A stretch of DNA of 64,000 nt from Clostridiales bacterium (GTDB lineage Bacteria > Bacillota > Clostridia > Christensenellales > Borkfalkiaceae), in assembly GCA_015055805.1 (NCBI GenBank), contig SVHN01000001.1, positions 241,982 through 305,981 on the forward strand, given 5' to 3'. The first letter of the stretch is position 1. Each line of letters begins with the position of its first letter. Below are positions 23,598 through 25,619 of this stretch, piece by piece. The notes below the pieces were generated by a model, which did not search any database, was not told the DNA's origin, and saw only the letters and a program-made list of their open reading frames with translations. The translations under genes and the position numbers were made by a program.

Positions 23598-25415
23598 ATG
23601 AAAAACTTACGTTTAATCAAAATAAGTCTTGCTTGTATTTTGGCGGTTTGCATATCTGCTTTTGTGGTTAGCTGCTCAAACAAAGTTGAACTTAAAAACT
23701 GGGAGAACACCACTCAATCGGTAAGCTACGGCACAACTTTCAATTTGGAAACTACTGCGGAAGATACCGACGGCAATCTTTATGAAATGACCGCATCTGT
23801 TACCGACGCAAACGGCGACGCCGTCAGTTACGAAGGCGCAAAGTTCGTGGTTAAAAGTTACGATGGCTACACCGTCAACTATTCGGTAAAGATAGGAAAA
23901 AAGGACTTTGAAAAAACGGTGACCATAACCGTTACTGCGCCTGCACCCGTGATAACGACGGCAGTAGCATCAAAGTACTACGTTGGCGGAACGTACTCTA
24001 TTCCTACTTGTACGGTAGCCGACTATGAAGACGGTGAAATTAAAGATTACACCGTGGAAATGTTTTTGATAACGGAAAATGGTGAGCAAAAACAGGAATA
24101 TAACGTAGCGGATATGACCTTTACACCTACGACGGCTGGCAGTTATTACTTTATATACCGCGCGGTAAATAGCGCAGGGGTAGAAGGAATAGCAAAGCTT
24201 GAATTTGAAGTTGAAGACCTTGCAAAATATCTTCCTTACGTCGTCAAAGCCAACGACGAAGAGCAGATAACTAGGATTTATCACGAAAGTAATTCAAGTA
24301 GGGTGAGCGTGGTTTCTACCGATTCAGGACTATTTGAAACGTATAGCGGAAACTATGACGGCAGCGCGGCAAGGTTTACGGCGCAGCACGCCTATAACGG
24401 TGAATATAGGGTTAAAAACGTTTATCCTAAAGAAACGCTAGATCAAGTCAAGAAAAGCTATACCCACGTTACACTTTGGTGGGCGTTTGACTTAGTAGAA
24501 CTTGAAAACCAGAACGGCGAAATATATCTGTTAAATAAAAACACGTCGACAGGTCTAGAATATCAATGCTTTTTCGGCAAAGCGAACGCGCTTAAAACCT
24601 ATTATACGGCGCAAGGCAAAACGTGGCGAAAAATTTCAATAAGTATCGACGATTATATCGCTTTAGTTGAAGAAACCGATTATCAGTATTTTATACTTTT
24701 CGGGCTTGCAAATAGGGGCACGAAGATATCTGACACTAAGTCGGCAATATTTATCGGTGATATATTCTTTGACAACGTCGTTGCCGAATCGTTTATAGTC
24801 AATCAAGACAATTATAGTTACTATAACTATAACGGATATTCAAACTCTAATTACGTAAATTATCTGCCATTAGGTTCAAGCGAGCTTGAAACGCTTAGCG
24901 GAGATTATACGGGTAACGCCGTTAAAATGAAAGTTGCTGCTGGACACGGCGGACAGTATAGGATTACAAACAACTACACCAAAGCGCAGTTGGAAAGTGT
25001 TAAAAATCAATATAAATACGTTACGATATACTGGGCTTTCAGTATTACGCCTACTGCGGGAAATTCAAGTTGTTACTTAAATTTCTTGCCAGAAACTAGC
25101 GGTAACAGTATCTTGCTAAAAGGCGGAATTTTGGGCATGAAGAACGACAGTTCGGAAACAAACAAGGCTTGGCAAAAAACGACTATATCGTTTGAAGATT
25201 ATTTAGCGTTACTGGAAGAAAATGATTATAAATATGCAGTTTTATTCCGTACGGGCGACGTCAATACGATAGACGTTCCAAACTCTGCGTTCTATTTGGG
25301 CAATATAATTTTCTCAAAAACCGAAGATCCTAACGCGCCAAATGAGCCAACCCCTGCGCCGATAGTTCAAGACGTTGATCAGGATAACGGCGACCATATT
25401 CAATACTGGCAATAA
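23598..25415 (+). CDS. Multi-domain lipoprotein: Ig-like region, two tandem beta modules, C-terminal tail DVDQDNGDHIQYWQ
   Basis: Signal + lipobox 'SAFVVSC'; internally repeated ~180-aa module; Pro-rich linker before tail. Confidence 0.75.
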   Translation: MKNLRLIKISLACILAVCISAFVVSCSNKVELKNWENTTQSVSYGTTFNLETTAEDTDGNLYEMTASVTDANGDAVSYEGAKFVVKSYDGYTVNYSVKIGKKDFEKTVTITVTAPAPVITTAVASKYYVGGTYSIPTCTVADYEDGEIKDYTVEMFLITENGEQKQEYNVADMTFTPTTAGSYYFIYRAVNSAGVEGIAKLEFEVEDLAKYLPYVVKANDEEQITRIYHESNSSRVSVVSTDSGLFETYSGNYDGSAARFTAQHAYNGEYRVKNVYPKETLDQVKKSYTHVTLWWAFDLVELENQNGEIYLLNKNTSTGLEYQCFFGKANALKTYYTAQGKTWRKISISIDDYIALVEETDYQYFILFGLANRGTKISDTKSAIFIGDIFFDNVVAESFIVNQDNYSYYNYNGYSNSNYVNYLPLGSSELETLSGDYTGNAVKMKVAAGHGGQYRITNNYTKAQLESVKNQYKYVTIYWAFSITPTAGNSSCYLNFLPETSGNSILLKGGILGMKNDSSETNKAWQKTTISFEDYLALLEENDYKYAVLFRTGDVNTIDVPNSAFYLGNIIFSKTEDPNAPNEPTPAPIVQDVDQDNGDHIQYWQ

Positions 25416-25478
25416 TCGACCTAACCTATGGACTAGTTAAAAAAAATAAATAATTCATAGATAAAGGAGGATATTTCT

Positions 25479-25619
25479 ATGAAAAGAAAGTATTTACCCC
25501 CAACGGCATACCTAGATATGCTTGAACCGCTCGACGTGCTTACCACATCAACTACAGGTCAAAGCGTCGACCAAAGTAACGGCGACCATATTCAATACTG
25601 GTCGGACGACGTAATTTAA
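25479..25619 (+). CDS. 46-aa peptide MKRKYLPPTAYLDMLEPLDVLTTSTTGQSVDQSNGDHIQYWSDDVI
   Basis: Strong SD (aaaggagg), in tight operon context, carries VDQxNGDHIQYW shared with the upstream lipoprotein C-terminus; absent from the ORF track. Confidence 0.75.
   Translation: MKRKYLPPTAYLDMLEPLDVLTTSTTGQSVDQSNGDHIQYWSDDVI

What the first reader, a model, noticed from the sequence alone, without database searches (positions are those of the whole stretch)
25369..25619. Lipoprotein and adjacent 46-aa peptide share an unusual C-terminal tail (NGDHIQYW) in locus 1
The 605-aa lipoprotein ends ...QDVDQDNGDHIQYWQ*. Sixty-odd nt later an unannotated 46-aa ORF with a near-perfect SD ends ...QSVDQSNGDHIQYWSDDVI*. 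At DNA level AACGGCGACCATATTCAATACTGG is 24/24 identical while flanks differ. The peptide has no signal sequence (MKRKYLPPTAYLDMLEPLDVLTTSTTG...). A tail shared between a surface lipoprotein and a tiny cytosolic-type peptide suggests a recognition, sorting or modification tag, with the peptide as a co-substrate, competitor or precursor. A recent local duplication or gene conversion is the dull alternative.
Basis: partly seen in the sequence, partly recalled or inferred. Interest (0 to 1): 0.88.

Follow-up and report, generated by a model that had tools for sequence, protein, structure and literature searches.

The report
Shared tails on lipoproteins and phosphopeptide-like precursors
In an uncultured gut bacterium, a small peptide that looks like the precursor of a kinase-modified peptide ends in the same short sequence as the neighbouring lipid-anchored surface protein; this pairing recurs with different but still matching sequences in at least eight loci, which suggests that the bacteria use a locus-specific molecular tag that we did not find described.

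Summary
The lipoprotein (23598-25415) and the 46-aa peptide (25479-25619) share Q(D/S)VDQ(D/S)NGDHIQYW. A second gene set in the window does the same with another sequence: lipoprotein 41037-42806 and small ORF 42951-43073 (DPSLDDVY), plus a 48-aa mini-lipoprotein 45258-45404 (DPVMDDIY). Seven more loci in related genomes share tails, each with its own sequence (permutation: 0 of 20,000). The carriers directly upstream are all lipoproteins (6 of 44; 0 of 81 other proteins). The tails are conserved as protein (pN/pS about 0.13-0.18), so recent duplication or conversion alone does not explain them. However, a syntenic ortholog keeps the peptide tail and has none on its lipoprotein, so the lipoprotein tail is optional.

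The peptide belongs to a large family with leader YxxP...D(V/I)xTxS. This resembles leaders of phosphorylated lasso peptides and of linear polyphosphorylated peptides (LPP, 2026), with Ser at the phosphorylated position. The genome encodes an HprK-like kinase next to a PqqD-type leader-binding protein, in trans; PqqD co-occurs with the peptides (P=4e-9).

Best reading: an LPP-like precursor whose core is also displayed on lipid-anchored carriers as a locus-specific recognition motif. Phosphorylation, export and receptor are inferred.

The parts
23598..25415 (+). 605-aa lipoprotein (lipobox VVSC), two related beta-rich modules, C-terminal tail
   Evidence: low-confidence model with disordered residues 577-605
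25368..25412 (+). lipoprotein tail QDVDQDNGDHIQYWQ
25464..25470 (+). Shine-Dalgarno AAGGAGG of the peptide gene
25479..25619 (+). 46-aa LPP-like precursor peptide MKRKYLPPTAYLDMLEPLDVLTTS|TTGQSVDQSNGDHIQYWSDDVI; leader Y5, P8, D19, V20; conserved Ser24 (codon 25548-25550)
25560..25601 (+). shared tail QSVDQSNGDHIQYW in the peptide
25633..27567 (+). 644-aa secreted protein with EGAxVR...GIRF N-terminal region and Big_2 domain, 13 nt after the peptide; candidate partner
41037..42806 (+). locus 2: 589-aa lipoprotein ending EDNPYDPSLDDVYIP
42951..43073 (+). locus 2: 40-aa peptide MTTKKSYTPAIINLVLLTKDIMNESQTPLNYDPSLDDVYL (YxP variant of the leader; P-to-Ser spacing 16 kept)
43094..45118 (+). locus 2: secreted GIRF-type protein (ORF opens at 43079)
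45258..45404 (+). locus 2: 48-aa mini-lipoprotein MKKKILLIMMAVLCVLTCAFSACKQDKPDVESPPVGEYNDPVMDDIYA, i.e. lipobox, linker and tail
45415..47046 (+). locus 2: second secreted GIRF-type protein after the mini-lipoprotein

Best explanation
The 46-aa ORF is a precursor of a modified peptide of the LPP / phosphorylated-lasso kind. Its N-terminal leader (YxxPx[ILV]...D[VI]xTxS) is bound by a PqqD-type RRE and its Ser24 is phosphorylated by an HprK-like kinase; both are encoded once per genome, away from the precursors (inferred from sequence, context and literature). Its variable C-terminal core (the tail) is a short, acidic, mostly Trp-containing recognition motif. In some loci the same motif has been placed at the C-terminus of a lipid-anchored protein (large lipoprotein or mini-lipoprotein) encoded beside the peptide and the big secreted protein, and has been kept there by selection (shown). 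I infer that peptide core and lipoprotein tail are ligands for the same locus-specific partner, most likely the large secreted GIRF-type protein or its binder: the lipoprotein presents the motif tethered to the membrane and the peptide presents it free and modified, so the surface glycan-uptake complex is assembled or competed for in a locus-specific way.
For: Shown: tail sharing in 9 loci (about 8 independent) with different but matched sequences, permutation 0/20,000; all directly upstream carriers are lipoproteins, 6/44 vs 0/81, P=0.0015; homologous lipoproteins with different tails each matching their own peptide (window vs G198:C50); homologous loci G089/G208 in which both tails changed; pN/pS 0.06/0.44 in the three strongest pairs and 0.11/0.60 in seven, binomial P 5e-4 and 7e-8; peptide tail conserved across genera, NGDHIQYW vs NGDHLQGW. 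Leader: Y 137/141, P 127/141, V/I at Y+15 124/141, Ser at Y+19 112/141. This equals the Y(-17), P(-14), Ile/Val(-2), Ser3 spacing of BsfA, whose Ser3 is phosphorylated by an HprK-like kinase helped by its RRE (PMC10368454). Machinery: PqqD in 44/44 genus genomes; HprK-like kinase directly beside it in the window's genome, with FHSS, SGTGKST and NDDKP; PqqD closest to lasso B1 families and TbiB1. Co-occurrence of peptide and PqqD across the order, 14 of 17 genomes against 3.2 expected, P=4e-9; peptide and PqqD within 1.5-4 kb in G493, G515 and G567; PqqD clusters there carry HprK-like kinases, SipW-type peptidases, NTases, ABC transporters or radical SAM enzymes, as in LPP clusters (PMC13381572).
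Against: Most peptide loci show no tail sharing; after the top pairs are removed there is no residual excess. The syntenic ortholog L271 lacks the lipoprotein tail. The window genus's precursors are not next to the kinase/RRE, and in G493 the adjacent enzyme is a radical SAM protein, so the modification could differ. No export or leader-cleaving enzyme was identified in this genome. Kinase family matches are weak (NCBIfam ScmC 2e-5, HprK_rel_A 0.0024, both below cut-off). No evidence identifies the receptor. The S/T to D/E trend (phosphomimicry) is not significant (7/18 vs 7/35, P=0.13).
Confidence: 0.45

Rival explanations
1. Tail sharing is a by-product of short local duplications or gene conversion between neighbouring 3' gene ends, without function in the lipoprotein.
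For: 24 nt fully identical in locus 1 and 25/27 nt in locus 2; short distances (52-144 nt in most cases); ortholog without lipoprotein tail; sharing in only about 6% of loci.
Against: Synonymous divergence exceeds nonsynonymous in shared blocks (pS 0.44 vs pN 0.06; 0.60 vs 0.11 in seven pairs); recurrence in about 8 independent loci; restriction to lipoproteins (6/44 vs 0/81); a tail on a 48-aa lipoprotein that is otherwise only lipobox and linker.
Confidence: 0.15
2. The tail is a processing or sorting tag: one enzyme (peptidase, ligase or transporter) acts on the C-terminus of both peptide and lipoprotein, for example to cleave or attach it.
For: Tails are at the extreme C-terminus in every case and predicted disordered.
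Against: Tail sequences differ between loci of one genome (NGDHIQYW vs DPSLDDVY), which a single general enzyme would not require; most neighbouring secreted proteins lack any tail; no transmembrane or charged sorting segment follows the motif.
Confidence: 0.2
3. The lipoprotein tail is an immunity or sensor mimic: it binds the cell's own modified peptide or its target to prevent self-recognition, as for a secreted signalling or antagonistic peptide.
For: Peptide-matched variation per locus; lipid-anchored presentation at the cell surface; LPPs are patchy and suspected of roles in biological conflict (PMC13381572).
Against: Sharing is rare; loci are carbohydrate-uptake loci with ABC transporters and glycoside hydrolases, not toxin-immunity loci.
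Confidence: 0.1
4. The small ORF is a translational leader or attenuator for the secreted protein downstream; its product is irrelevant.
For: Very short distance (13 nt in the window) to the next start and strong SDs; 95 of 145 peptides have a gene start within 30 nt downstream.
Against: Conserved amino-acid pattern over 141 peptides; many peptides follow the secreted protein instead of preceding it; selection on the tail as protein; co-occurrence with an RRE.
Confidence: 0.04

Closest known systems
Linear polyphosphorylated peptides (LPP; LppA/LppB/LppK/LppS, Popov et al. 2026, PMC13381572)
   Same: YxxP leader bound by a discrete PqqD-type RRE; HprK-like kinase; Ser just after the leader; conserved N-terminus with highly variable C-terminus; relation to surface polysaccharide loci.
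   Different: Leader consensus differs (D[VI]xTxS rather than HQxIxFETxxS; Tyr-to-Ser 19 rather than 18); precursors are scattered singly beside surface-protein genes and the kinase/RRE pair is in trans; no SpI-like peptidase seen beside the pair in the window genus; core shared with lipoproteins, not described for LPP.
Phosphorylated lasso peptides (Bsf and paeninodin groups; BsfA/BsfK/BsfB1, PMC10368454)
   Same: YxxPx[L] leader, Ile/Val at -2, Ser at +3, HprK-like kinase and RRE; identical Tyr/Pro/Ser spacing.
   Different: No Gly1 at the core start (Thr commonest), so no lasso macrolactam expected; no cyclase or B2 protease beside the pair.
HPr-rel-A and SynChlorMet cassettes (NCBIfam TIGR04352/TIGR04353, ScmC/ScmD)
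   Same: HprK-related kinase paired with a PqqD-family protein.
   Different: Scores are far below the curated cut-offs; the other cassette genes were not seen.
Cohesin-dockerin and other locus-specific surface assembly systems (from own knowledge)
   Same: Works-like analogy only: matched modules on neighbouring-encoded surface proteins of carbohydrate-degrading loci.
   Different: The motif is 8-14 residues, disordered, and also present on a leader-bearing small peptide.

Membership tests
LPP RiPP family | YxxP RRE-binding motif in leader | tested here: met
   Y 137/141, P 127/141 at the expected spacing; locus 2 peptide has YxP
LPP RiPP family | full leader consensus YxxPxVLxHQxIxFETxxS | tested here: not met
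   family consensus is YxxPx[ILV]x[IVL]..[FLY]...D[VI]xTxS; Tyr-to-Ser 19 instead of 18
LPP RiPP family | discrete RRE and HprK-like kinase | tested here: met
   adjacent pair in the window genome and in three other genus genomes examined; PqqD in 44/44
LPP RiPP family | Ser3 polyphosphorylated by the kinase | not testable with these tools
   Ser at Y+19 in 112/141; chemistry needs mass spectrometry
LPP RiPP family | SpI-like (SipW-type) leader peptidase in the cluster | tested here: inconclusive
   not within about 1.5 kb of the pair in four genus genomes; present beside PqqD in related families; not searched genome-wide
LPP RiPP family | precursor encoded in the same cluster as RRE and kinase | tested here: not met
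   no precursor found within 1.5 kb of the pair; window precursors lie on other contigs
Lasso peptides | Gly (or equivalent) at core position 1 and Asp/Glu at 7-9 | tested here: not met
   position +1 is Thr 65/141, with Gly not among the common residues
Lasso peptides | macrolactam cyclase and B2 protease | not tested
   not seen beside the kinase/RRE pair; no genome-wide search made
C-terminal sorting signals (sortase, PEP-CTERM type) | motif followed by transmembrane segment and basic tail | tested here: not met
   tails end 1-5 residues after the motif, acidic, no hydrophobic segment

The most novel reading that the evidence does not exclude
A tag system in which the core of an RRE/kinase-modified peptide is duplicated onto membrane-anchored carriers (large lipoproteins or minimal lipobox-linker-tail lipoproteins). 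Carrier and peptide co-evolve within each locus as free and tethered versions of one ligand, possibly with Asp/Glu in the carrier standing in for phospho-Ser of the peptide.
Probability: 0.25. Interest if true: 0.9.

Novelty: new variant of a known kind. Interest (0 to 1): 0.74.

Why it matters
The biological role of phosphorylated lasso-like and linear polyphosphorylated peptides is stated to be unknown (PMC13381572). Here the variable core of such a precursor is matched, locus by locus, to a lipid-anchored surface protein of a carbohydrate-uptake operon. That ties the peptides to surface-protein biology and gives concrete, testable partner pairs. It also exposes a large unannotated small-protein family (145 distinct members in the loci sampled, no match in Pfam or NCBIfam for the members scanned) and minimal lipoproteins that are little more than an anchor and a tag.

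Tried and rejected
(1) Direct database lookup of the peptide: only itself found; Pfam and NCBIfam gave nothing for it. (2) General tail sharing: an early hope that all peptide loci share tails was rejected; after the top pairs no excess remains. (3) Phosphomimicry (Ser/Thr to Asp/Glu in carriers): suggestive in locus 1 but not significant overall. (4) Two high-scoring hits in an automated small-ORF scan (L095, L215) are fragments of gene-family members, not tails. (5) AlphaFold model of the lipoprotein: mean pLDDT 56; Foldseek gave only weak carbohydrate-binding-module and glycan-binding-protein-like matches; not used as evidence beyond the disordered tail. (6) PDB sequence search with the kinase found no HPr kinase; the assignment rests on motifs, weak NCBIfam hits and pairing with PqqD. 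(9) Paper searches for a tail shared between lipoproteins and small peptides found nothing relevant.

Full report
Observation. The shared block is 14 codons: 9 identical, 3 synonymous differences (V, D, Q) and two Ser/Asp differences, followed by different 3' ends. It occurs nowhere else in the window. G024 (SVHH01, Clostridiales bacterium SIG379) has the identical locus. The window's own genome is a 1.73-Mb assembly in 20 contigs.

A second case in the same window. The lipoprotein at 41037-42806 ends ...EDNPYDPSLDDVYIP*. Nine consecutive codons encode the same residues, with two synonymous differences. After the next secreted protein, a 48-aa lipoprotein (45258-45404) is just lipobox, linker and EYNDPVMDDIYA*. 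Both gene sets lie in carbohydrate-uptake loci: ABC permeases, binding protein, GH123- or GH-like proteins and lipoproteins.

The peptide family. Searches with the peptide and with alignments of its relatives showed a large, divergent, unannotated family, present in 41 of 44 genomes of the genus and 51 of 57 of a second genus, with 7 matches in the window genome. 145 distinct peptides were extracted. Pattern: Y 137/141, P three residues later 127/141, hydrophobic residues, Asp at Y+14 108/141, Val/Ile at Y+15 124/141, Ser at Y+19 112/141. Tails average 18.7 residues, 24% Asp+Glu, no Cys, Trp in 106 of 145. 95 of 145 genes have another start within 30 nt downstream, usually a large secreted protein with an EGAxIR...GIRF N-terminal region; others lie directly after such a gene.

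Tail sharing is recurrent but not general. Comparing each tail with the C-termini of neighbours gave, besides the two window cases: G071 (LANDNDGKDVENWIV / LVNDNDGNDVENWYW, another genus), G089 (NFNPDWLDKI / NFNKDWLPSI) and its homologous locus in G208 (NFNPGWL / NFEKNWL), G148 (DDTVDFNY / DDMVDFNF), G201 (GDNVVNDEDI / GDNQVFDDDI), G198 (DMVGTDKVWGNE / DMIDGSGDKTWGGLE) and G205 (carrier downstream, DGTMDDVYN / DGTVEDVYD). For 44 lipoprotein-peptide pairs the summed score exceeded all 20,000 permutations; without the top pairs there is no excess, so the distribution is bimodal: a minority of loci share, the rest do not. The weaker pairs (G198, G208, G201) are individually modest. All six directly upstream carriers in the automated set are lipoproteins (6/44 vs 0/81, P=0.0015).

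Covariation and selection. G198's lipoprotein is a homolog of the window lipoprotein (32% identity) with a different tail that matches its own peptide. In the shared blocks, pN/pS is 0.06/0.44 for the three strongest pairs (binomial P 5e-4) and 0.11/0.60 over seven pairs (P 7e-8). Pairs were selected by protein similarity, which favours low pN, but a neutral duplicate with so few replacements should show about one synonymous change, not eight. So the tails are kept as protein; recent copying alone is insufficient, though the 24-nt identity in locus 1 may reflect one later conversion.

Limits on the pairing. L271 (JAFTPK010000011.1, roe deer cecum MAG) is a fully syntenic ortholog: its peptide ends YDTENGDHLQGWGENW, but its lipoprotein stops at ...YVGDIVFDNLN. 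The conserved element is the peptide tail; the lipoprotein copy was gained in the window lineage or lost elsewhere. Related lipoproteins in loci where no peptide was recognised have no such tail.

What the peptide is. PqqD (PF05402), the RRE fold that binds RiPP leaders, occurs in 44/44 genomes of the genus and 3/14 control genomes. In the window genome it sits beside an HprK-like kinase with FHSS, SGTGKST and NDDKP motifs; the same pair appears in three other genomes examined (L314's kinase frame is incomplete in the listing). The RRE is closest to lasso B1 families and TbiB1, with 9x90 and 9x8z (PbaB1, LppB) next. Across 248 genomes of the order, peptides occur in 17, PqqD in 46, both in 14 (P=4e-9; 8e-8 without the window genus). 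In three other families peptide and PqqD genes are 1.5-4 kb apart, and PqqD neighbourhoods there contain HprK-like kinases, SipW-type peptidases, NTases, ABC transporters or radical SAM enzymes.

Literature. In BsfA, a phosphorylated lasso precursor, Tyr(-17), Pro(-14), Leu(-12) and Ile(-2) precede Ser3, which an HprK-like kinase phosphorylates with help from the RRE (PMC10368454). The spacing Tyr-to-Ser 19 and Pro-to-Ser 16 equals that of the family here. The LPP family (PMC13381572) has RRE, HprK-like kinase, SpI-like peptidase, NTP transferase and MsbA-like transporter; precursors of 35-200 aa with a conserved N-terminus YxxPxVLxHQxIxFETxxS and variable C-termini; Ser3 polyphosphorylation; role unknown. 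The window peptides are like this but do not meet its full leader consensus or its one-cluster organisation, so they are described as LPP-like, not as members.

Mechanism. Shown: recurrent, selected tail matching between peptides and lipid-anchored proteins; leader conservation; linked presence of RRE and kinase. Inferred: RRE binding, Ser24 phosphorylation, export of the core, and a common locus-specific partner, most plausibly the large secreted protein encoded next to the peptide. The carrier would present the motif tethered, the peptide free and modified. A common processing enzyme is less likely because tails differ between loci of one genome.

Verdict. I rate it a new variant of a known kind, with interest 0.74: it gives concrete partner candidates for a class of modified peptides whose role is unknown.

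Noticed in passing
45258-45404: 48-aa mini-lipoprotein consisting of lipobox, short linker and a tail related to locus 2's; similar minimal lipoproteins (48-111 aa) lie next to leader peptides in L106, L189, L191, L249 and L251.
   Followed up: partly
G000 contig C10:111802-112771 (locus L316): HprK-like kinase and PqqD pair upstream of a DUF1846-type gene (name from memory), conserved across the genus; candidate trans-acting maturation pair.
   Followed up: yes
25633-27567, 43094-45118, 45415-47046 and homologs: Large family of secreted proteins with an EGAxIR...GIRF N-terminal region, usually encoded beside the leader peptides; for 25633-27567 Pfam reports only a Big_2 domain.
   Followed up: no
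G091 loci L022-L025: Several paralogous peptides in one genome with nearly identical cores (DYAHVKESWLDS-WL), each next to a different secreted protein; core constant across loci here, unlike the window genus.
   Followed up: no
L326 (G493 contig C5): Leader peptide, radical SAM protein, PqqD and SipW-type peptidase in a row: an LPP-like cluster with a radical SAM enzyme in place of the kinase.
   Followed up: no
L334 (G491 contig C35): Cys-rich putative precursor MKKFEAPKMMIVKLPQEEVIATSSLCDSKMCYGYDCPDCSAICTGVYSCAVFKCSTY near PqqD, an HprK-like kinase and an S26-like peptidase.
   Followed up: no
window 22266-25415 and homologs L293-L312: Conserved carbohydrate-uptake gene order (two permeases, binding protein, GH123-like protein, about 400-aa lipoprotein, large lipoprotein) across genera; the large lipoprotein has no acidic tail where no leader peptide was recognised.
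   Followed up: partly
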